Source: Gammaproteobacteria bacterium MedPE
Lineage (GTDB): Bacteria > Pseudomonadota > Gammaproteobacteria > Enterobacterales > Psychrobiaceae
Assembly (NCBI GenBank): GCA_001874365.1
Contig: MPDF01000018.1
Location: 1 to 37,645, forward strand
Length of the DNA: 37,645 bases
Direction: 5' to 3'
Positions 26,961 to 37,645 of this stretch are shown here, piece by piece. Every line of letters starts with the position of its first letter. Position 1 is the stretch's first letter. A model generated the notes under the pieces. It had not been told where the DNA came from, did not search any database, and saw nothing but the letters and a program-made list of their open reading frames with translations. Made by a program: the position numbers and the translations under genes.

Positions 26961-29336
26961 TTAGAATTTTCCGCGTAAACTGATACTCATTTGGCGCTCT
27001 TCGCCTAATGTCATACGCTCAACACGGCGACCAGCACCATAAGCTGCGCCGCTGATGTATTCTTTATCTAATAAGTTTTTACCAATTAGATAGATGCCTA
27101 AATCATCCCACTCATAACCAACTTTCATGTTAACCAAAGTCCGACCGTCATTATCGGCATCATAGTTTGGGTGATCTTTTGACAAACCGCGAATATCAGG
27201 ATCAATTTCCGCCTTAGAGCTATTAGCGTAATTAAGGCTAACGTTAGCAAAGACACCACTATCACCACTGTAGGTTGCTGCTAAACTGCTTGTCCATTCA
27301 GGTGAATCAGCAAACGAACGGCCAGACAAGTCGCGAATCACGTCTTCCCCTGCTGTTGGAATAACCACTAAGAACTCTTTAAATTCTGTATTTGCTTGGC
27401 CTATTGACGCTGATAACTCTAAGTTATCATTGACCTGATAATAGGCTTCTAATTCAAACCCTTTAACGACTGAACTACCAGCATTTCGAGTTTCAGCATC
27501 GAACGTACTTTCTGACAACTGAACATTCACTTGTTGATCTTTCCAATCGATGTAGAACGCATTTGCGTTAACCATTAAGTCGCCATCTAGCCAGAACGAA
27601 CGCATCGATAATTCATAGTTAGTGGTAAACTCAGGATCAAATTGATAGGCAGTTGCTTTACCTGAATTAACGCCGACACCTCCTGAACGATAACCTTTTT
27701 GTACGACAAAGCTTGTTGTCATGTCATCGTTCCAATGATAACTCACACCAAGTTTTGGGATAACCTCATTAAAACTTGCATCAACTAACGGAATAGGATT
27801 GTTTGCGCTTTCTACTTGAGCGATTAGCCGGGCATTGATACCAGCAATCAGTTGATCAAGTGGCGCAGGATAATTCGCGACAACTGGCATATCAGCGATG
27901 TTACCAATACTAAATAGCTGTGCATCGTTATTGTCTTGCTGTTCACGATCCCAGCGGATACCAGCGAAGATATCCCATTGATCGTTAATGTGGTAAGTGG
28001 CATCAGCAAATAATGCACGCGTTGCAACATTTTGCTCTGCTGAGCTATTTTGATTTAACTGGACAGGATCCAACTTAGCGTACTGTGAAATAACATAGTT
28101 TGCTGTTGCCTCATCTAAACCAAAGCCAGCTTGTAAAAATGGCGCATTAATACCAGCAGATGCCAAGCTAATGCGTGTTACGCCGCCAAACTGACTAGGG
28201 CGATCTTCATCAAAATAATAAGCGCCGATAATGCCATCGATATTGTCGTAGTTAAACGTAAAACGTAATTCTTGACTCACCGTTTTGGCTTGCTCTTGGA
28301 AGAAACGCGTGCCACCTGCTTCAGGACCATTATCATCATCAAAATCCAACCAACCTGGCTCCGCTTTTGAGTAGGTTGATACAGAGGTTAGCTGCCAGTT
28401 TTCATTGATAGCGTAGTTAACTTCAAGGTTTGCAATATTGGTCTTGTAATTAAGCTCTTGCTTGTCATTATTAGTAATTATTCGTTGATCGAATGGGCTA
28501 CCACTTGCTGGTACATTGACACCATCGGTTCCTTTGTCGGTTATTGCACGCGTCAAACTAAGCTGCGCCGTTAATTCTGGCAGTGATTTTGGCGTATATA
28601 AAAATTTCAAACGATAGAGTTTATCTTCACGAAAATCTGAATGCTCGTTTCTAATCGGGTTATAGTTAAAACCATCAAATTCTTCGCTTTCGGCGCTAAA
28701 GCGCACTGCTAATTCATCTTCAATCAAGCTGCCGCCAATAGCGACTGCAAATTCACGTTCACCGTGTTGTCCTAATTGAACACGATATTGGCCGCCAAAG
28801 TCATGAGTTGGCGCTTGCGTTGTCATAATGACTGCACCAGCTAGAGAATTACGCCCTTGTAATGTTGACTGTGGCCCTTTTAAGACTTCAATTTGGCTTA
28901 CATCCCATGTTGAGAAGCCATTGCTGACCATTCTTCGTGGCATTGCCGCGCCATCAATGTAAATACTTGCTAAACCACTACTACCGGCACCGGACACATT
29001 AAAACCATCAATGCCACGAATACTAAAGCCACCATTGGCATTAGAATGAATGTTCGCTGTTTCGAACATAACTTCGCTAATATCACCAAGATTTTGCTGT
29101 TCCATTTTGTCGCTAGTAAACACGGCGATACTTGCGGGTGTTTCTTGCAGTGTTCTAGAAATTTTTTGACCAGTAACAACGATCTTTTCATATTTCTGTT
29201 TTTCAGCCTCCGGTCCAGGAGTCTGCTGTGCAACAGCATTAAATGTAATAAATGAGCCTAAAGCAATACTGATTGCCGAAGCGACTTTAGAGTGACGAAG
29301 CGAAAGTGCAGATTGACGCTTAGCGAAGGGTTTCAT
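26961..29336 (-). CDS. TonB-dependent outer-membrane receptor
   Basis: A 791-residue receptor for active uptake across the outer membrane. The start at 29336 (MKPFAKRQ) is chosen because AAGGA precedes it and it gives a normal signal peptide ending NAVAQ; the longer frame from 29450 would put a hydrophobic stretch before this. The plug domain begins after KIVVTGQK (TonB-box-like) with ETPASIAVFTSDKMEQQ and contains IEVLKGPQSTLQGRNSLAGAV; a 22-strand barrel follows, ending SISLRGKF with the terminal Phe. The substrate is not readable: no Fur box was found upstream, so it may import something other than iron. It is divergent from the cytochrome b561 gene. Confidence 0.92.
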   Translation of the reverse strand: MKPFAKRQSALSLRHSKVASAISIALGSFITFNAVAQQTPGPEAEKQKYEKIVVTGQKISRTLQETPASIAVFTSDKMEQQNLGDISEVMFETANIHSNANGGFSIRGIDGFNVSGAGSSGLASIYIDGAAMPRRMVSNGFSTWDVSQIEVLKGPQSTLQGRNSLAGAVIMTTQAPTHDFGGQYRVQLGQHGEREFAVAIGGSLIEDELAVRFSAESEEFDGFNYNPIRNEHSDFREDKLYRLKFLYTPKSLPELTAQLSLTRAITDKGTDGVNVPASGSPFDQRIITNNDKQELNYKTNIANLEVNYAINENWQLTSVSTYSKAEPGWLDFDDDNGPEAGGTRFFQEQAKTVSQELRFTFNYDNIDGIIGAYYFDEDRPSQFGGVTRISLASAGINAPFLQAGFGLDEATANYVISQYAKLDPVQLNQNSSAEQNVATRALFADATYHINDQWDIFAGIRWDREQQDNNDAQLFSIGNIADMPVVANYPAPLDQLIAGINARLIAQVESANNPIPLVDASFNEVIPKLGVSYHWNDDMTTSFVVQKGYRSGGVGVNSGKATAYQFDPEFTTNYELSMRSFWLDGDLMVNANAFYIDWKDQQVNVQLSESTFDAETRNAGSSVVKGFELEAYYQVNDNLELSASIGQANTEFKEFLVVIPTAGEDVIRDLSGRSFADSPEWTSSLAATYSGDSGVFANVSLNYANSSKAEIDPDIRGLSKDHPNYDADNDGRTLVNMKVGYEWDDLGIYLIGKNLLDKEYISGAAYGAGRRVERMTLGEERQMSISLRGKF

Positions 29337-29608
29337 TGTTGTTCCTTTTGAATGACTAATTGCTTGTAATCTATACCTAATTAATCGAATCATTAGGTCA
29401 TGACTAACAAATAAGAGCGCAATAGTAATAACAACCACTCTCATTTGCAATACAATTTATTGTTTTATTGTAAAGAAATAAAACACTTACAGTGAGTAGG
29501 TATTTAGTAATCTCAGGTTACAGTTAACCAAAACCACATTCACAACTTTCAGTATACTTTGAAACTTCATTTGTTATGCTAGGTACAAAACTTATCAAGG
29601 AAGAATAA

Positions 29609-30130
29609 ATGACAGATTCAACGCCAAACGAAACCAAGTACATTATCGATCGTATTCTGCATTGGTCAGCCGCTTTGTTGATGCTGGGAATGGTGTCGAC
29701 GATGGGCGCCGAAATCCACTCAACAGACTACACCATTAAGGGTGCTGTACTGCACAAGCAAGACGCCATCAATATACATTTAATGATGGGGTTAGGATTA
29801 TTAACGCTTATTATTGGACGTATATTTTGGTCTGCATTTGTGTTGGAAAAACACAAAAAGCCTCAGTTTAAATCTCCACTGCACAAGACTGTAGTCACTA
29901 TTACTCACCTATTAATGTACGGTTCGCTGTTTAGCATGATCGCCACTGGACTTGTCATGGTTAATAATTACGAACACCCGCTAACCTTGCTCGATTCCTT
30001 ATCTTTCGCCGAAAACGGCGGTAACCTAACAACATTTACCGATGCAAGAACTACCCACATGTGGATGCTTAACGCCTTTTATGTATTTATAGTCGGTCAT
30101 GTTGGCGCAGCGATTTATAGTAAGCGTTAG
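29609..30130 (+). CDS. Cytochrome b561
   Basis: A 173-residue four-helix inner-membrane dihaem cytochrome that exchanges electrons with quinone. Candidate haem-ligand His residues lie in each helix: His18 (RILHWSAALLM), His57 (INIHLMMGLGLL), His100 (THLLMYG) and His150 or His164. Length is like E. coli CybB (176). A good AAGGAAG ribosome-binding site precedes the ATG. The stop overlaps by 3 bases the stop of the convergent Toprim gene. It could serve superoxide or respiratory redox balance; that is family knowledge only. Confidence 0.9.
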   Translation: MTDSTPNETKYIIDRILHWSAALLMLGMVSTMGAEIHSTDYTIKGAVLHKQDAINIHLMMGLGLLTLIIGRIFWSAFVLEKHKKPQFKSPLHKTVVTITHLLMYGSLFSMIATGLVMVNNYEHPLTLLDSLSFAENGGNLTTFTDARTTHMWMLNAFYVFIVGHVGAAIYSKR

Positions 30131-31023
30131 TAGAGTTTTAATTGAGTAACAAACATCCATTGCTGGCGCAGAGCAACGCCTTCTTGATACATGGTATCTA
30201 ATAACGTGCGCCATTGTGACGGGCAGCAGTGCGCTATTTCCCGCTTTGAATAGGCTTTGTCTTCATCAAAATGAGTTGGCAAACAATGTTCTTTAAGCCA
30301 CGTTAATTCTGGAAGTAATAGATATTGATAAGGCGTTGTAGCTTCGATGGCAATCGCCAAGCCGTGAGGATCAAAATCGCCGAAATAGACTTGTCCACTT
30401 GTTCCTTTTTGTTCCAACCAGCGCGCTTTTAGTGCTTGGCAAGCTTTAGAGTGGTGACTTTCATGACCGCGATAAACAACCAGCGCATTGATTAATTCAC
30501 TTGGAATTTGATACTGGTGCCACGCACTAAAACAATCGCGATTCTCTACTACAATCAGATAATCATAAGATGTTAAATCTAGTGTGCGAATATCTAGCTC
30601 AACTTGAACCTGCGCAGGTGTTTCAGTCAATTGAAATAACGATTGATAAGTAAGACATAACGATAAATCACTGCACGCCGCCAGTACTAAATGCTCGGTT
30701 GGTAGCTCTTTGGCGTCTTTTTCATTAGGCGATACGTTAGCACCATCCAATCTATCACCAGCCACACCTTGTTGATAATCCAGCAGCGCCGAGTAACCCA
30801 TACTTTGCAATTTAGCATCGAGTTTTTGTATGCCATCACGCGCGATGTAATAATGTTTACTATCGCCCTCACGTCCGAGATTGATGGCGTGTTCGTCACA
30901 CCACATCAGCGTTTTCTTGAGCCAAGCGGCATTGCGTTTAGCTTTATAGCTTGTTTCAAGTTGAAGCGCCTTAAACGCCTTAGCTAATTCGTTGAGCGCT
31001 TGTTTAGACAAGGTTTCATCCAT
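30127..31023 (-). CDS. Toprim-domain protein, JetD/MksG-like nuclease subunit
   Basis: A 298-residue protein, last gene of the SMC operon. The N-terminal half (1-110) is helical and basic, a likely DNA-binding part. The C-terminal half has Toprim residues: Glu160 in LIVVENRDCF and Asp216/Asp218 in YFGDFDPHGLAIAI. DxDPxG is the Spo11/TopoVIA form, also seen in the DUF2220 domain of Wadjet JetD, the subunit that cuts plasmid DNA. It is shorter than the JetD proteins I know (about 380-400 residues). The gene starts 21 bases after the JetA-like gene behind GAGGGG. Nuclease action is inferred. Confidence 0.8.
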   Translation of the reverse strand: MDETLSKQALNELAKAFKALQLETSYKAKRNAAWLKKTLMWCDEHAINLGREGDSKHYYIARDGIQKLDAKLQSMGYSALLDYQQGVAGDRLDGANVSPNEKDAKELPTEHLVLAACSDLSLCLTYQSLFQLTETPAQVQVELDIRTLDLTSYDYLIVVENRDCFSAWHQYQIPSELINALVVYRGHESHHSKACQALKARWLEQKGTSGQVYFGDFDPHGLAIAIEATTPYQYLLLPELTWLKEHCLPTHFDEDKAYSKREIAHCCPSQWRTLLDTMYQEGVALRQQWMFVTQLKLY

Positions 31024-31044
31024 GAAAATCCCCTCAGTTAATGT

Positions 31045-32292
31045 TTAAACCACACTCAAATGCACGTCTTCAATCACGTGTAGCTGGTTAAAAACACTGG
31101 TTTCGTTAGACTTCTTGTCAAAGGCAAAGCGCTTGCGAATATCTCGCGCTAACCCTTCGTATTCGGCAATCACTTGGAAGAGCCACGTTTCACCATCCCA
31201 ATCTAACTTGCTGTGTTCTAGGTAATCCAACGCACTGACTGCACTATGACTATCGAACAAGCTAATAAAGAAATTTTCAACATCTTCTTTGAGCTGTTGA
31301 TGCTTAGCTTCAACAGCGAGTACTTCTTCGAGATCAAACTCGCCGCCACTGCTTAATGGCTCGACATATTCGTTAGTCGAGAGCTCAAGGCTGCGTACAA
31401 TATCGCCCAGCGGTTGCTGATCGCCCACGCGATCCAGCGCCACACTAGCACTGGCGATAATAGGCGCGGCGTGATTGATATTTTCGGGCACATTAGTGCG
31501 ATTGGGATAATCACCCACTTCAAATTTGGGATGCTGCTTTAAGAACGCCGCCATATTGCTAATCAGCTGTGCGCGCTCTTGTTGCTGCCTAAAGCGCGCC
31601 ATCAGCTCTACTAGACGTTTTTGCACTTCAAGCAATGAACTTGAATGATCGGAAATCACCACCTGTAATTGGCTCACCAACAGCTTACGTAGTGGACCAC
31701 TACTTTGTGCCAGTTCGATCATCTCGTTAAAGTCGATTAACTCAAAACCATCAAGTAAGCGACGCAATTGCTTTTGCGCTAACTCATTTTCGCGAATTTT
31801 GTCACCAAGATTGCTGACAAAACCAAAATCGGAATTGAGACGATTCCACAAACTGACGATGGCATCGCTAAATTGCCCCGTCATATCGTGTACTTTCTCC
31901 GTCAATAGCTGAAAATGATGCTCACTGCCCACGTAATCGCCGCGATATTGCGCATCGGAAAAATGTTTAACTAGGGTGCGAATTTGCTCTAATTGTCCTG
32001 CAACGTCGGCGTTTATCTGACGCTTACGCTCATCTTCGGTGAGACTGGCTATTAACGTATTCATATCTGGACGCAGACTCAGCGGCTGTGACTCATCAGG
32101 GCGATGTAAAATACGCCCCTTTACTAGCTTATCAAGCGCCGAATCATTAATACTGGTCTCGTCAAAATGCCCTTTAATATAGGCATCCATCAGTTGCGAG
32201 CTATATTTGCCAATCAAATTTAAGCGTGCAACACCCAGCGCATGTAAGCGACTTTGCGGGCTTTTATCTTTGTCTTGCTTGCGAGAGGCCAT
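31045..32292 (-). CDS. MukF/JetA-like kleisin subunit of an SMC complex
   Basis: A 415-residue, soluble, helix-rich protein without enzymatic motifs. An N-terminal winged-helix-like part (about 15-80) precedes long helices (about 85-260) and a C-terminal segment. This layout and the position between a KITE-type gene and a Toprim gene fit the kleisin that closes the ring of MukBEF, MksBEF or JetABC complexes. Sequence identity to known kleisins is too low to see by eye, so the call rests mainly on order, size and composition of the operon. The ATG overlaps the stop of the preceding gene by one base (TAATG). Confidence 0.65.
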   Translation of the reverse strand: MASRKQDKDKSPQSRLHALGVARLNLIGKYSSQLMDAYIKGHFDETSINDSALDKLVKGRILHRPDESQPLSLRPDMNTLIASLTEDERKRQINADVAGQLEQIRTLVKHFSDAQYRGDYVGSEHHFQLLTEKVHDMTGQFSDAIVSLWNRLNSDFGFVSNLGDKIRENELAQKQLRRLLDGFELIDFNEMIELAQSSGPLRKLLVSQLQVVISDHSSSLLEVQKRLVELMARFRQQQERAQLISNMAAFLKQHPKFEVGDYPNRTNVPENINHAAPIIASASVALDRVGDQQPLGDIVRSLELSTNEYVEPLSSGGEFDLEEVLAVEAKHQQLKEDVENFFISLFDSHSAVSALDYLEHSKLDWDGETWLFQVIAEYEGLARDIRKRFAFDKKSNETSVFNQLHVIEDVHLSVV

Positions 32293-32912
32293 TAGAACAT
32301 AGACTCTTGTTGCGGCATATCATCGAGTGGCAATGACTCTTCATCTTTTATGAAACGCACCATTTCCACCAGCTGCTCAATTTTACCTGTTACGACATAA
32401 AACTGACGATCTTTATGAGGTTGGTGCAAATAACCAGCTTCTTTTAAACGCTTAAACACTTGCTTAAGTTGGGCGTCAAGATTGTCACTGCTCGATTTAA
32501 AAAAGCGATCACTGGCTAATTGCGTGAAGCGTTGACGTAGTGATTGATTATCTTCTGTACGCAATGCAAATTCTTGAAATTTAATGGTGTCGCCAGCGCT
32601 TAACGCACCATCGCGCCCAAGGCTTTCTTGCACAAGTTGCATCCATTCTAATAACGGTAATAGTGATTGCACCGTTTGCTTAAACTCTTTCGACAAATGT
32701 TCACGGGCATCACCGTTGAGTTCTTGATACGCGAGAAAATAAACGCTGTTATCACTGCTCGACGCTACACGGCGATTAAGCGGTCGTAAAAAGTGATTAA
32801 GCTCTTCACGCACTACTTCATCAGACAATCGTCGATAAGCTTCTTCATCGGTAACCTGACAAATACTCGCACCAGCTAATAGCGATTCTAGTAATGGGCC
32901 ATGTTCAATCAT
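32292..32912 (-). CDS. MukE/JetB-like (KITE) subunit of an SMC complex
   Basis: A 206-residue soluble protein whose C-terminal half looks like tandem winged helices (LDAQLKQVFKRLKEAGYLHQPHKDRQFYVVTGKIEQLVEMVRFI, read in parts). It is the size of MukE, MksE and JetB (about 200 residues). Coupled to both neighbours by TAATG overlaps (32912 with the SMC gene, 32292 with the kleisin-like gene), as expected for fixed subunit ratios. The assignment rests on size, context and fold impression; no signature motif exists for the family. Confidence 0.65.
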   Translation of the reverse strand: MIEHGPLLESLLAGASICQVTDEEAYRRLSDEVVREELNHFLRPLNRRVASSSDNSVYFLAYQELNGDAREHLSKEFKQTVQSLLPLLEWMQLVQESLGRDGALSAGDTIKFQEFALRTEDNQSLRQRFTQLASDRFFKSSSDNLDAQLKQVFKRLKEAGYLHQPHKDRQFYVVTGKIEQLVEMVRFIKDEESLPLDDMPQQESMF

Positions 32913-35900
32913 TAGTTCACTCCTTCACTAGATTTTTGTAACTGTTGTGCGATTTTCGCTTCAATTCTATTTACTTTCGGTTCAATTCGCTGCAAGCGTT
33001 TATATTGTTTATCGATGAGATATCGGTGTTTAAACAACGTTAACACATCAGACTCTGGATTCGGGAAGGCACCAACGATGCAGATGTTATTGCTATCACA
33101 AGCGTTAAATAGCTTTTCAACGTTGTGATAGGCCAGCGTACCAATTTCATCAATCGGCCAGTTGACGCTGATCTGCGCATCGCCGCGCAGTAAACGGGTA
33201 AATGCAAGTAAGAATTTACATAAAATCAGATACGCCATGCCGTGACTCGATGACTCTAATAACTGACGATCGTTTTTGATGACCAAGTCATTACCGCCTT
33301 CGTTGAGGTGCAGTTCAAGGCGCAATAATGATTCTATCGAATAACTAGAATCGGCACGTAGCAAATCAACCACGTCACTTAACGCATTAATATACTCATC
33401 ACTCGGTAATTCTTTACCCGTCTCTTTCCACTGCTCATAAAGATTTGAAAAGCGTTTTAACGGCTGCCAGAAATTAAGTTCGTCAACGGTAGAGATAATC
33501 TTCACTTCAGAACGATTAATACCATCGAGCGTTAAGTCATCACTCACCGCTGCGGTTAGGCGTTTAGATTGCCCTGAAATACGGCGATTAATGTCACTAA
33601 ATACGGTAAAGAATTTGTGTAAATCACCGCCGATGGTTTCTCCTTGCTCTAAAATCTGACGCTGTTGATCGGATAAAATACGCAATAAGTCACTAAAGAT
33701 CGGTAAACGATCGCGTAAATCACCTTCTTCACCTAAACGAGATAGCTCGCTAGTCATTAAATCAAGGAACTGTTTTTGGGCATCTTGTGATAACTCAGCT
33801 TCAAGCGTATACACTTTATCTTTCAAGGTATTTTCTGTCTTGCTACGCTGCTCTAAACCGTGGGCTGTTCGAGTAATGCGCTCGTCTTGATCTCCTTGCA
33901 CTGGCGGCAGGCCAACAACGAGCTTACCATCAATAGTTAACTGACTCAGCTTGCTATTGAGGGGCATTATTTGCTCAATGAGTTTAGACAGACGGCTAAT
34001 GTCTAATTGTAACTGTTCTCGCTCGCTTTCTAGTTTCTGACGTGCTTGTTTAAATTCAGTTTTCTGCTGATTTAGCTTGCCCGTGAAACTTTGAATGGAA
34101 GCCTTTAAATTCGCTTCTTGTTCCAGATATTGCGGTCGAGATTTCTGCCACAACACATTGATAAAGTTGCGATACTCTCGTAAGTCATCTTGACGTGAAC
34201 GCACGCGAGCAATATCTTCTTCCAGCTGTTTAATTCGCTCTTTTAGTGCTTGAATGGTTTTAGGATCGATGTCTTTATTGGCCAGTTCAAGTTTGAAGGC
34301 TTCTTCTAATTGCTTAATTTGTGCCTTGTTCGTTTGACGCTTGTGGTCAACTTGCGCCTCAAGTTCGCCAATTTGGCTACTGATAGCATCAATCTCTTGC
34401 TGCCAATCAGCTTTAAATTCTAATAACTGCGCTTGATGATCATCTTTTAAGGTCGCTAGCGCGTCACGCTTTTGCTCACTCAACTGCTTGATTTGTACTT
34501 TTGCTTCGTCCAAACCACTGCTCGCCGCCTTACGACGCGTGGCTAAACTGTCTTTATTGGCCTGCAGTAAACGCTGTTTCGATTCTTTAGCGAAGTTAAC
34601 TTCGTTAGCCTGCTCAGATTGTGTTTGCTTGAGCTTAGCCACATCATCGGCTAATGTTTTCACTGTGTTATGTGCTTGCGTTAATGCTGTTTCACACTCG
34701 CTTTGCTTATCTAGCGCTGCAGCGACTTTACGCTCTAACTCTTCTTTGTTGATACGAAGCGCTGCTTCATCTTGAGCATAGCTCGGTGCATCAATTTCAC
34801 TTAGCTTCAAGGCAACGCCATAAAGTTCACTATGACTATCACCAGTTTGTGGATGAAGATCTAAGCGTTCTAGTAGCTCTTGATTAATCACCTTGCCAAT
34901 AGAGTTTTCCCAGCCATCAACATTGGCACGTAAGAAATGACGCAGTGAGCCCTGCTCTGGTGAAATTTGCTGCTCTAGCAATCTCAGTTGCTTTTGCAGC
35001 TGATGGACGCTCGTTCGCGCATTTTCAAGTTTAGTTTGTACTTGATGCTGATGATTACGGGCATTTTGATGTTCGCGCTCTTTCTTCGTCAACTGCTCGC
35101 TCGTTTGGCGCCAGTTATCTTGAGCAATCTCTAAACGCTTATCGCTAAGGGATAAATCTTCCTGTTCTTGCGTCGTCGGCCCCATGTTGTCTATTTGCGC
35201 TTGACGTTCGATTTGTTGATGCCTAAAGACGCCTAATTGGCTATCAAAATCTTCAGTAAGTTGCTCTTTTCGAACGAGGTATTGCTCAGATAATTGATCT
35301 TTCTTATCACTATGTTGCTGACGTGTTTGTTCACGATTCTCTTCGTGTTCACGAATTTGTTTACGATTTTTTACCGTCAGACGTTCTAGTGACTCGTTTA
35401 AAGTAAGTTTTTGCTGATTTAGCTGTTGCTCTAATTCGCCAAATTGCTCTAGTAAAATGCGGTAATGGCTTTGCTGCTCTACTAACTCTTCGTTCCAAAG
35501 CGGTAGTGCATCAGTATCAATGGCCAATTGCTCATAATCACCGTCTTGGTAATTGTCATACGTATTTTGCAATTCATCGAGCTGTTGCTCGGTGGTTTTT
35601 AACTCGGCGTTGGCCTTACTCAGCTCACTATTTATAGTAGATTCGCACTCATGGAAGTTCGCTTTTAGTGTAGCCACCTTCTCACGCAGCTCTTTGTCAT
35701 TGGCTTGTAAATCAGCACGCTCAGTTTTACTGCGCTCTAAATCGTCACTCAATAATGGGGTTAATTGCAGCAACTGCGCTTCAATGGCATTTAAACTCGT
35801 CGCTATCTGCTGTACTTTTTCGTGCTGTAATTCAAGTGAACTAAGGCGCATCGATTGACGCATTTGCTTAATCCACTCACGCGCCTTGGTGTTTTTCACT

Positions 35901-36577
35901 CGCGTCGTTGGCTGCACTAAACCGTCTTCTTCGAAAATAGCTGCTAGCATGGTTTTTAGCGTGTCCATCTTGCCTTCTTTGGCATGAACAGCACTAACGA
36001 GCTTTTCTAAATGACGTACTTTGTGACGTGGTGCCACTAACGAATAACGTGCCGCTAATTGGCGAAGCCTGATACCATCTTGCGTATTACCGCGCAAAGA
36101 TGACACATCATTTTGAACAATGGCGCGATATTCACTAGTAGCGCTGATTTTTCGTGAATACTTAAGTTCAAGGGACGCTAACTGCGTTAACCATTGATCT
36201 GGTTCAAAGGCTTTGACCTTGCCATTACTTTCTTGAAATAACAGCTGATTCTTATCGTAAGCCGCATCAACAAACCGATAGCTAATGCCATCTTTTGCAG
36301 TATGGGTTAACACTGCCTGGCATAAATCACCTTCTTCGCGTTGATATTCGTATACTAAATAGCTATTTGATTTCGGCAGGTAAAAGTCACCAAATTTACT
36401 GCGTGTTTTAGGTACAACGCGACTGGGTAATTCGCCGTAAAATACTGGTACTAAGCGCTGTAGAGTCGTTTTACCCGACGCATTGGTGCCACAAATATTA
36501 GTGTGACCATCAAGGGATAATTCGACAACACCCGGCAAGTGGGTATTGATTAAAATAATGCGGCGTAAACTAGCCAT
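32912..36577 (-). CDS. SMC-like ATPase, MksB/JetC type, of a condensin-like defence complex
   Basis: A 1221-residue protein with SMC layout: an N-terminal ATPase half with Walker A GTNASGKTT (30-38), a first long coiled coil (about 235-540), a hinge-like globular part (about 540-600, with NVDGWENSIGKVINQELL), a second coiled coil (about 600-880), and a C-terminal ATPase half with an ABC-type signature SSSHGMAYLI (about 1109-1118) and Walker B ISVNWPIDE (about 1136-1144). This is the P-loop/Walker-B type of JetC and MukB. Such complexes extrude DNA loops; with a Toprim subunit they cleave small circular DNA. It is the first gene of the operon, preceded by a GAGG ribosome-binding site, and divergent from the gene at 36754. 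Confidence 0.85.
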   Translation of the reverse strand: MASLRRIILINTHLPGVVELSLDGHTNICGTNASGKTTLQRLVPVFYGELPSRVVPKTRSKFGDFYLPKSNSYLVYEYQREEGDLCQAVLTHTAKDGISYRFVDAAYDKNQLLFQESNGKVKAFEPDQWLTQLASLELKYSRKISATSEYRAIVQNDVSSLRGNTQDGIRLRQLAARYSLVAPRHKVRHLEKLVSAVHAKEGKMDTLKTMLAAIFEEDGLVQPTTRVKNTKAREWIKQMRQSMRLSSLELQHEKVQQIATSLNAIEAQLLQLTPLLSDDLERSKTERADLQANDKELREKVATLKANFHECESTINSELSKANAELKTTEQQLDELQNTYDNYQDGDYEQLAIDTDALPLWNEELVEQQSHYRILLEQFGELEQQLNQQKLTLNESLERLTVKNRKQIREHEENREQTRQQHSDKKDQLSEQYLVRKEQLTEDFDSQLGVFRHQQIERQAQIDNMGPTTQEQEDLSLSDKRLEIAQDNWRQTSEQLTKKEREHQNARNHQHQVQTKLENARTSVHQLQKQLRLLEQQISPEQGSLRHFLRANVDGWENSIGKVINQELLERLDLHPQTGDSHSELYGVALKLSEIDAPSYAQDEAALRINKEELERKVAAALDKQSECETALTQAHNTVKTLADDVAKLKQTQSEQANEVNFAKESKQRLLQANKDSLATRRKAASSGLDEAKVQIKQLSEQKRDALATLKDDHQAQLLEFKADWQQEIDAISSQIGELEAQVDHKRQTNKAQIKQLEEAFKLELANKDIDPKTIQALKERIKQLEEDIARVRSRQDDLREYRNFINVLWQKSRPQYLEQEANLKASIQSFTGKLNQQKTEFKQARQKLESEREQLQLDISRLSKLIEQIMPLNSKLSQLTIDGKLVVGLPPVQGDQDERITRTAHGLEQRSKTENTLKDKVYTLEAELSQDAQKQFLDLMTSELSRLGEEGDLRDRLPIFSDLLRILSDQQRQILEQGETIGGDLHKFFTVFSDINRRISGQSKRLTAAVSDDLTLDGINRSEVKIISTVDELNFWQPLKRFSNLYEQWKETGKELPSDEYINALSDVVDLLRADSSYSIESLLRLELHLNEGGNDLVIKNDRQLLESSSHGMAYLILCKFLLAFTRLLRGDAQISVNWPIDEIGTLAYHNVEKLFNACDSNNICIVGAFPNPESDVLTLFKHRYLIDKQYKRLQRIEPKVNRIEAKIAQQLQKSSEGVN

Positions 36578-36753
36578 TGAAACCTCAAAACACGTGAAAG
36601 AAATCCATTAGCTGACCATCATATAGGGATTTTTACCCGATTCAAGGAGCACGCGGTTAGTCACTCAGTTTTTAACCCTTTTACATTGCTAAGCGATGCC
36701 AGTGCGATTAAGATATATCAACCGCTATAAGACATAAGGACAACAACTCACTA

Positions 36754-37645
36754 GTGAAGGTTACTAAATTAAGTCAAGACGAAGCACTTTCTATCACCCT
36801 GCGTCATCAACTGTTGCCGCAAACTCAACAACGCATCGATTTATATTTTTCCCTGCCTAATGAAATGGGAATCAGTCCACAAACATTAGACGAATCGAAT
36901 TATTTTCACAGCAGTATTAAAACGCGCTCAGCCTACTATTCAGATAAACTGCATTTGCCGTTGGTTCGCAGTCGATTCATTAGTGCTAAAAAAGGCGAGC
37001 AAGACGATTATCGCGTCAACTTAAACCTGTTTTCTTATCAAATAAAAACAGCGCTTGATATCGACATCAAACAAACGTTGCAACACAAAGACAGCGACGG
37101 ATTTTATCCAATGGCTCATGAGCTTGCAGAGCAGAGTATTGGGCTTTTGAAAAAACTCAGACGTAATGCGCCCAGTGACAAAAAATTTAAGTCGTACCAT
37201 GAGAACGCTGACAATTACCTAAGTTGGCATGTGGAGCAATCGTTTCTCAAATTATTGGCCAAAGGGCCTAAAACCAGTGAAAACACTGAAATCAGAGAAC
37301 AATTGATTAATTTATGTCGCACAGAGAATAATTATCGCGATAGCAATCAATTCAACTCTCAAATCACCTTGGATGATCCTAATCGTATTACCAACAAAAT
37401 GCGCTTGTTACAGCGATTGATGGAATATGGCGTAGTATTCACCAAAGACATGCGTCACTTAAACCGGAATTTAAAGCGTTTTGTGCGCGGTAGTGTTACC
37501 GCCATCATTATGGCGTTTGTGATGACGCTTGTGCTTAACGCCCGTTCATCGTTTACCGAAGTCACCTTAGTACTGGTTGCTCTGCTTGGCGTGATTTACG
37601 GTTTACGAGAAACGTTTAAAGATGATATTACCCAAATCATTTGGC
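36754..37645 (+). CDS. Unknown membrane protein, 5' part (GTG start, runs off the right edge)
   Basis: An uninterrupted frame of 297 codons reaches the window end. The only suitable start is GTG at 36754 (an in-frame stop lies at 36709 and no ATG between), with AAGGA about 13 bases before it. The protein begins MKVTKLSQDEALSI. The first 240 residues are soluble and mixed-charge; two hydrophobic helices follow (VTAIIMAFVMTLVLNA and LVLVALLGVIYGL) at about 245-285, so it is probably a membrane-anchored protein with a large cytoplasmic domain. I do not recognise a family. It is divergent from the SMC operon and shares its upstream region. Confidence 0.75.
   Translation, partial: MKVTKLSQDEALSITLRHQLLPQTQQRIDLYFSLPNEMGISPQTLDESNYFHSSIKTRSAYYSDKLHLPLVRSRFISAKKGEQDDYRVNLNLFSYQIKTALDIDIKQTLQHKDSDGFYPMAHELAEQSIGLLKKLRRNAPSDKKFKSYHENADNYLSWHVEQSFLKLLAKGPKTSENTEIREQLINLCRTENNYRDSNQFNSQITLDDPNRITNKMRLLQRLMEYGVVFTKDMRHLNRNLKRFVRGSVTAIIMAFVMTLVLNARSSFTEVTLVLVALLGVIYGLRETFKDDITQIIW

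What the first reader, a model, noticed from the sequence alone, without database searches (positions are those of the whole stretch)
30127..36577. Wadjet/MksBEFG-like condensin operon with non-standard gene order (SMC first: C-B-A-D)
Seen: four coupled genes in the order 1221-residue SMC-like ATPase, 206-residue and 415-residue helper proteins (TAATG overlaps), then a Toprim protein 21 bases on. Known: Wadjet operons run jetA-B-C-D and MukFEB/MksFEB run kleisin, KITE, SMC, that is, SMC after its helpers. Here the SMC gene leads. Inference: a divergent plasmid- or phage-defence condensin, possibly a subtype apart from the described Wadjet types I-III.
Basis: partly seen in the sequence, partly recalled or inferred. 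Interest (0 to 1): 0.78.

Follow-up and report, generated by a model that had tools for sequence, protein, structure and literature searches.

The report
Chromosome-folding machine with optional DNA cutter
This four-gene operon encodes a widespread but undescribed relative of the bacterial DNA-loop motors MukBEF and Wadjet; across marine bacteria the motor part is kept as a standard chromosomal gene set while its DNA-cutting subunit comes and goes, so one machine may both fold chromosomes and destroy plasmids.

Summary
In detail: SMC (1221 aa), KITE (206 aa), kleisin (415 aa) and a Toprim nuclease (298 aa) lie in that order at 36577..30127 (-). The homology guess is supported. The SMC is a full-length Pfam DUF3584 protein. 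The KITE is MksE/JetB-like. The AlphaFold2 kleisin model matches MukF best. The nuclease model matches MksG, topoisomerase VI-A, JetD and Spo11, with E160, D216 and D218 invariant in 64 of 64 relatives. The gene order is not an oddity: SMC-KITE-kleisin is the rule in more than 100 loci. The family lies outside PADLOC's JetC types I-III by profile, and the SMC head does not group with type I JetC.

"A defence operon" is too narrow. The SMC-KITE-kleisin core was found in all sampled genomes of five families. Its nuclease is missing in 40 of 106 scorable loci (at least 20 gain/loss changes), while the core stays under strong purifying selection. All eight sampled Psychromonas genomes have no other recognisable condensin. 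Six copies found on large plasmids and one phage all keep the nuclease.

Best reading: an MksBEF-like chromosomal condensin with a detachable Wadjet-type nuclease. Function is inferred, not tested. New variant of a known kind.

The parts
32912..36577 (-). SMC-family ATPase, 1221 aa, Pfam DUF3584 (PF12128); Walker A GTNASGKT, unusual signature SSHG, Walker B WPIDE
   Evidence: PF12128 801 bits over 8-1190; Walker A, signature and Walker B residues invariant in A1; motifs printed
32292..32912 (-). KITE subunit, 206 aa, MksE/JetB-like
   Evidence: MksE PF21980 24.8 bits, below its cut-off of 27; 14 of 17 family members match MksE (best 3e-9) and 5 match DUF4194; TAATG overlap with SMC
31045..32292 (-). 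Kleisin subunit, 415 aa, MukF-like: N-terminal domain, helical bundle, linker, C-terminal winged helix
   Evidence: AlphaFold2 model pLDDT 80.5, pTM 0.40; Foldseek top hits MukF, E 2.6e-3; VIA-align top seven rows MukF, Z about 13, 312 residues aligned to full-length MukF; TAATG overlap with KITE
30127..31023 (-). Toprim nuclease, 298 aa, DUF7281 (PF23947), MksG/JetD/TopoVIA-like; catalytic E160, D216, D218
   Evidence: PF23947 100.9 bits; E160, D216, D218 invariant in 64 of 64; model pLDDT 87.4, matches MksG Z 11.4, TopoVIA 10.9, JetD 10.8, Spo11 9.1, next unrelated 5.7
36578..36753 (-). Intergenic region upstream of SMC, divergent from the gene at 36754; one weak sigma-70-like match at 36645-36618
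   Evidence: number of matches is no more than in shuffles, so only a candidate promoter
36754..37644 (+). Conserved upstream flanking gene (partial), marks the fixed chromosomal site in the genus
   Evidence: Homologues flank the operon in L031-L038 and L119
23521..26774 (-). dnaB-alr-dsb flank downstream, core chromosomal genes that mark the same site in the genus
   Evidence: All three next to the operon in L035, L037 and L119; dnaB and alr in L031

Best explanation
The operon encodes a KITE/kleisin SMC complex of a distinct family (Pfam DUF3584 SMC, SMC-first gene order), built like MukBEF/MksBEF/Wadjet, with a TopoVIA/JetD-type Toprim nuclease as a fourth, detachable subunit. Shown here by sequence and model: the subunit homologies, the conserved gene order, invariant ATPase and Toprim catalytic residues, core-gene distribution in several marine gammaproteobacterial families, repeated absence of the nuclease with an intact and constrained core, and the lack of any other recognisable condensin in Psychromonas. 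Inferred: the SMC-KITE-kleisin core is a loop-extruding motor that works on the chromosome. Where the nuclease is present, as in this window, a complex that fully extrudes a small circular DNA triggers the nuclease and cuts it, while the chromosome is spared by its size. Where the nuclease is absent, the same core acts as a chromosomal condensin only.
For: Subunit identity. Invariant SMC-KITE-kleisin order. Core distribution: own genus 10/10; f2 (Moritella) 9/9, f6 (includes Shewanella) 9/9, f10 8/8, f12 (Psychromonas) 8/8. Nuclease optional: 66 with, 40 without, at least 20 changes on the SMC tree. Strong nuclease-family hits (over 60 bits) occurred only in DUF3584 genomes in the order sample. 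Core dN/dS about 0.01-0.05 in nuclease-less pairs, about the same as in most nuclease-bearing pairs, against 0.08-0.19 for the nuclease. Psychromonas 8/8 without SMC, ScpB, MukB or another MksE-type KITE. Copies on five large plasmids (110-397 kb) and a 209-kb phage all carry the nuclease. Fixed locus beside dnaB-alr in the genus. [quoted passage not shown]
Against: No functional test exists. Kleisin homology rests on a model with pTM 0.40 and on helical-bundle matches whose background is Z 11-12. Some genomes of family f3 show neither SMC, MukB nor DUF3584, so absence of a known condensin does not prove that this one does the job. The nuclease diverges fast and whole operon alleles were swapped at the fixed site (26% identity between SMC alleles, DnaB 88-89%), which looks like an arms race rather than housekeeping. 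Most relatives with the operon (f1, f2, f6, f10) also have canonical SMC.
Confidence: 0.6

Rival explanations
1. A dedicated plasmid- and phage-defence system of Wadjet type (a further Wadjet type) with no chromosomal role; nuclease-less copies are decaying or use another effector.
For: Four-gene layout and JetD-like nuclease; fast nuclease evolution; swapped alleles at one site; complete copies on plasmids and a phage.
Against: Nuclease-less cores are intact and as constrained as the others; a whole Alteromonas-type clade of 15 loci lacks the nuclease; present in all sampled genomes of five families; only condensin found in Psychromonas.
Confidence: 0.25
2. A purely chromosomal condensin; the Toprim protein helps with decatenation, repair or unloading and does not destroy foreign DNA.
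For: Core distribution and constraint; TopoVIA is among the best fold matches of the nuclease.
Against: The nuclease is repeatedly absent and fast-evolving, and every copy inspected on mobile elements has it; MksG and JetD match as well as TopoVIA.
Confidence: 0.12
3. A Lamassu/DdmABC-like Rad50-type defence system.
For: Weak LmuB matches of some SMCs.
Against: Window SMC LmuB match only 7.6 bits; partners are KITE, kleisin and TopoVIA-like nuclease, not LmuA/LmuC.
Confidence: 0.03

Closest known systems
Wadjet / MksBEFG (JetABCD, type I)
   Same: Kleisin, KITE, SMC and a TopoVIA-like Toprim nuclease in one operon; intact ATPase motifs; nuclease model matches MksG 8b7f and JetD 7til
   Different: SMC-first gene order; described JetC1-3 models barely match; nuclease shorter (298 aa); ABC signature SSHG/SSTG instead of SGGE; nuclease facultative; operon core in several genera
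MksBEF (Pseudomonas aeruginosa) and MukBEF (E. coli)
   Same: MksE-like KITE, MukF-like kleisin, chromosomal core distribution
   Different: No MukB domain PF04310; gene order reversed; many copies, including this one, carry a nuclease; no MatP in the Psychromonas genomes that have DUF3584 only
Pfam DUF3584 (PF12128) and DUF7281 (PF23947)
   Same: Full-length membership of the SMC, 801 bits, and of the Toprim, 100.9 bits
   Different: Pfam gives no function; here the two are tied to one operon together with KITE and kleisin
Smc-ScpAB
   Same: Condensin architecture: SMC, kleisin, KITE
   Different: Head groups apart from canonical SMC; the own genome has both

Membership tests
Wadjet (JetABCD types I-III) | SMC ATPase with Walker A, signature and Walker B motifs | tested here: met
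   Motif residues invariant in A1; sequences; signature is SSHG/SSTG, not SGGE
Wadjet (JetABCD types I-III) | KITE subunit (JetB) | tested here: met
   MksE in 14/17 and DUF4194 in 5/17 members; the window member itself is below the MksE cut-off
Wadjet (JetABCD types I-III) | Kleisin subunit (JetA) | tested here: met
   Fold match to MukF, moderate strength; no JetA family match by sequence
Wadjet (JetABCD types I-III) | TopoVIA-like Toprim nuclease (JetD/MksG) with catalytic Glu and DxD | tested here: met
   Z 11.4 MksG, 10.8 JetD; E160, D216, D218 in 64/64; absent in 40 of 106 relatives
Wadjet (JetABCD types I-III) | SMC belongs to a described JetC type | tested here: not met
   PADLOC JetC best 20 bits over the first 42 aa, against 1505 bits for L201; grouping with JetC1 rejected, p-AU 0.007. 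Types II and III were tested by profile only
Wadjet (JetABCD types I-III) | Kleisin-KITE-SMC-nuclease gene order | tested here: not met
   SMC-KITE-kleisin(-nuclease) throughout the family; mksFEBG order in described systems from PMC10123090
Wadjet (JetABCD types I-III) | ATP-dependent cleavage of small circular DNA; plasmid restriction | not testable with these tools
   Needs biochemistry
MukBEF | MukB N-terminal domain PF04310 | tested here: not met
   No match in the window SMC or the own genome
MksBEF | MksE-type KITE with SMC and MukF-like kleisin | tested here: met
MksBEF | Three subunits without nuclease | tested here: not met
   The window has the nuclease; 40 relatives lack it
MksBEF | Role in chromosome organisation | not testable with these tools
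   Only indirect: core distribution, constraint, sole condensin in Psychromonas
Pfam DUF3584 (PF12128) | Full-length match above the curated cut-off | tested here: met
   801 bits, model 1-1191 of 1191
Lamassu | LmuB-type SMC with LmuA/LmuC partners | tested here: not met
   LmuB 7.6 bits; no PADLOC match for the two middle proteins, only JetD and mREase_II matches for the fourth

The most novel reading that the evidence does not exclude
In Psychromonas, and probably in Psychrobiaceae and Shewanella strains with the nuclease, a single SMC complex is at once a chromosome-folding condensin and a plasmid-destroying Wadjet-type nuclease, sparing the chromosome by size alone; the family as a whole shows repeated switching between the two states by gain or loss of one gene.
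Probability: 0.35. Interest if true: 0.82.

Novelty: new variant of a known kind. Interest (0 to 1): 0.62.

Why it matters
A 2023 review (PMC10586767) notes that the total-extrusion model implies Wadjet motors act on chromosomes too, that this has not been documented for any JetABCD system, and that MksBEF probably arose by loss of JetD. This family offers many related strains with and without the nuclease (at least 20 changes on the tree), and one genus where the complex is the only recognisable condensin, so both questions become directly testable by simple gene removals. It is also nearly invisible to PADLOC's models.

Tried and rejected
PF13558 as a probe for the own genome found nothing. 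PDB searches by sequence profile were weak for all subunits: only MksG at E 0.034 for the nuclease, and coiled-coil noise for the SMC, so folds were used instead. Chance or artefact was rejected by the conserved order in more than 100 loci. A Lamassu reading was rejected. The first head trees had mis-cut C-terminal heads and are superseded. rpoB of G078 was mistranslated and is ignored. A first profile comparison of the plasmid and phage genes printed nothing because of a parsing slip and was repeated. Promoter and terminator scans gave no more hits than shuffles. A viral-contig scan gave only one fragment. The paper that defined MksBEF (Petrushenko 2011, PMC3179180) is not held, so whether it already counts these as a subfamily could not be checked; the paper searches brought up none that describes the family in title or abstract.

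Full report
OBSERVATION. On the - strand the SMC gene runs 36577..32912 (1221 aa), the second 32912..32292 (206 aa), the third 32292..31045 (415 aa) and the Toprim gene 31023..30127 (298 aa). The first two junctions read TAATG and the last gap is 21 bases. Neighbours include lysS-like, prfB-like and dnaB-alr genes (my reading of the ORFs), so the contig is chromosomal. The genome is a Psychrobiaceae relative: one genome of the same genus matches a public contig titled DT-Psychrobiaceae-3 by length.

SUBUNITS. SMC: full-length Pfam DUF3584, 801 bits, with invariant Walker A, signature and Walker B residues. The signature is SSHG or SSTG rather than the SGGE of JetC1 and SMC. KITE: MksE below cut-off in the window (24.8 bits), but 14 of 17 family members match MksE and 5 match DUF4194, the JetB family of type I Wadjet (that DUF4194 is JetB is from general knowledge). 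Kleisin: no sequence match. The AlphaFold2 model has an N-terminal domain, a helical bundle, a linker and a C-terminal winged helix. The six best Foldseek matches are MukF, and MukF fills the top seven places of the second look at Z about 13, although unrelated helical bundles reach Z 12. Toprim: DUF7281 100.9 bits. The model matches MksG, TopoVIA, JetD and Spo11 at Z 9-11.4, with the next unrelated match at 5.7. The catalytic Glu and DxD are invariant in 64 of 64 homologues.

GENE ORDER. In about 40 loci from the same order and in the 76 named loci, wherever the genes could be read, the order is SMC, KITE, kleisin and, if present, Toprim. The SMC-first arrangement is therefore a family trait. 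The family includes Psychromonas, Colwellia, Ferrimonas, Moritella, Shewanella, Alteromonas, Paraglaciecola, Rheinheimera, Idiomarina, Halomonas/Vreelandella, Ectothiorhodospira and some Pseudomonas. In a phylum-wide sample of 398 genomes all matches above the cut-off fell in the class Gammaproteobacteria.

DISTRIBUTION. In a sample of 149 genomes of the order, one DUF3584 operon is present in every genome of five families: own genus 10/10, f2 (Moritella) 9/9, f6 (includes Shewanella) 9/9, f10 8/8 and f12 (Psychromonas) 8/8. It is patchy elsewhere (f7 4/9, f16 2/5, f20 3/7). The denominators follow from the round-robin order in which the sample was drawn. The names f2, f7 and f12 come from contig-length matches; f6 comes from nesting with named Shewanella. 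Most of these genomes also have canonical SMC. All eight Psychromonas genomes lack SMC, MukB (one weak 24-bit match), ScpB, MatP and any other MksE-type KITE, so the DUF3584 complex is their only recognisable condensin. Caution: some family f3 genomes show none of SMC, MukB or DUF3584, so absence is not proof of function.

OPTIONAL NUCLEASE. Of 106 loci that could be scored, 66 have the Toprim gene and 40 do not; at least 20 changes are needed on the SMC tree, and one Alteromonas-type clade of 15 loci lacks it entirely. In the own genus G016 lacks it: the kleisin is followed after 177 bases by dnaB, and no DUF7281 match exists elsewhere in that genome. In the order sample every DUF7281 match above 60 bits was in a genome with DUF3584. 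Selection on the core is about equally strong with and without the nuclease (dN/dS about 0.01-0.05 for most pairs), while the nuclease evolves faster (0.08-0.19). Several synonymous distances are saturated, so only the contrast, not the exact ratios, should be used. A dead defence system would not be kept this way.

SIGNS OF CONFLICT. In the own genus the operon sits between the same flanks (an upstream divergent gene, and dnaB-alr-dsb) in all loci long enough to tell, yet three genomes carry an allele only 23-26% identical to the window's, although their DnaB is 88-89% identical (L031, L119; L032 by tree). Their rpoB falls inside the genus, so the operon was replaced in place. Complete four-gene sets, some with broken genes, also occur on plasmids of Aromatoleum, Azospira, Marinobacter, Vibrio campbellii and an IncC plasmid of Enterobacter (110-397 kb), and on the 209-kb Dolichospermum phage Dfl-JY45; all six keep the nuclease. 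Carriers above about 100 kb would escape a Wadjet-type size limit (limit from PMC10586767), but large operons also favour large elements.

MECHANISM. Shown: parts, order, catalytic residues, distribution, constraint. Inferred: the core extrudes DNA loops and organises the chromosome; with the nuclease, complete extrusion of a small circle brings the nuclease into action, as in the total-extrusion model for Wadjet (PMC10586767). This explains both the core-gene behaviour of the motor and the arms-race behaviour of the nuclease. I put 0.6 on this reading.

RELATION TO KNOWN SYSTEMS. By mode of action it is closest to Wadjet/MksBEFG where the nuclease is present, and to MksBEF where it is absent. 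By membership it is not a described Wadjet type: PADLOC JetC models give 20 bits, against 1505 for a type I JetC from a Shewanella-family genome, and the head tree rejects grouping with JetC1. Types II and III were tested by profile only. Whether the 2011 description of MksBEF already included these sequences could not be checked. I therefore rate it a new variant of a known kind.

Noticed in passing
L215:7971-14326 (Dolichospermum phage Dfl-JY45): A 209-kb cyanophage carries the complete SMC-KITE-kleisin-Toprim operon in the same order, all annotated as hypothetical proteins.
   Followed up: partly
L213, L214, L216, L217, L218 (plasmids): Complete or damaged copies on large plasmids; in pVIM-Exn692 (L214) the SMC gene is interrupted by an IS256-type element, in V. 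campbellii pLA16-1 (L217) SMC and kleisin are each annotated in two pieces.
   Followed up: partly
L197:771-6260, L202:1255-7005, L203:2479-8349: Relatives with other gene orders: L197 has about 419 aa, MksE-like, SMC-like, DUF7281-like Toprim; L202 and L203 have the Toprim first, then the SMC-like protein, a protein of about 475 aa and a small KITE-like protein. PADLOC gave only weak or no matches to the proteins tested.
   Followed up: partly
L036:6406-10074 (same genus, G096): The SMC gene is split by an in-frame TAA into 1050 and 171 residues, in a fragmented assembly; pseudogene or assembly error.
   Followed up: no
L131, L135, L144 against L186, L188, L189, L196: Some Shewanella carry the Psychromonas/Colwellia-type operon instead of the usual Shewanella type, a second case of replacement between deep branches.
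   Followed up: no
window 26961-29450: A TonB-receptor gene lies between dnaB and the cytochrome b561 gene here and in L033 but not in L035.
   Followed up: no
family f3 genomes G002, G028: No SMC, MukB or DUF3584 match at the thresholds used, so these appear to lack the common condensins or have very divergent ones.
   Followed up: no
L056 and L132 (Psychromonas): The Toprim gene lies about 5 kb downstream of the kleisin, separated by other genes.
   Followed up: no
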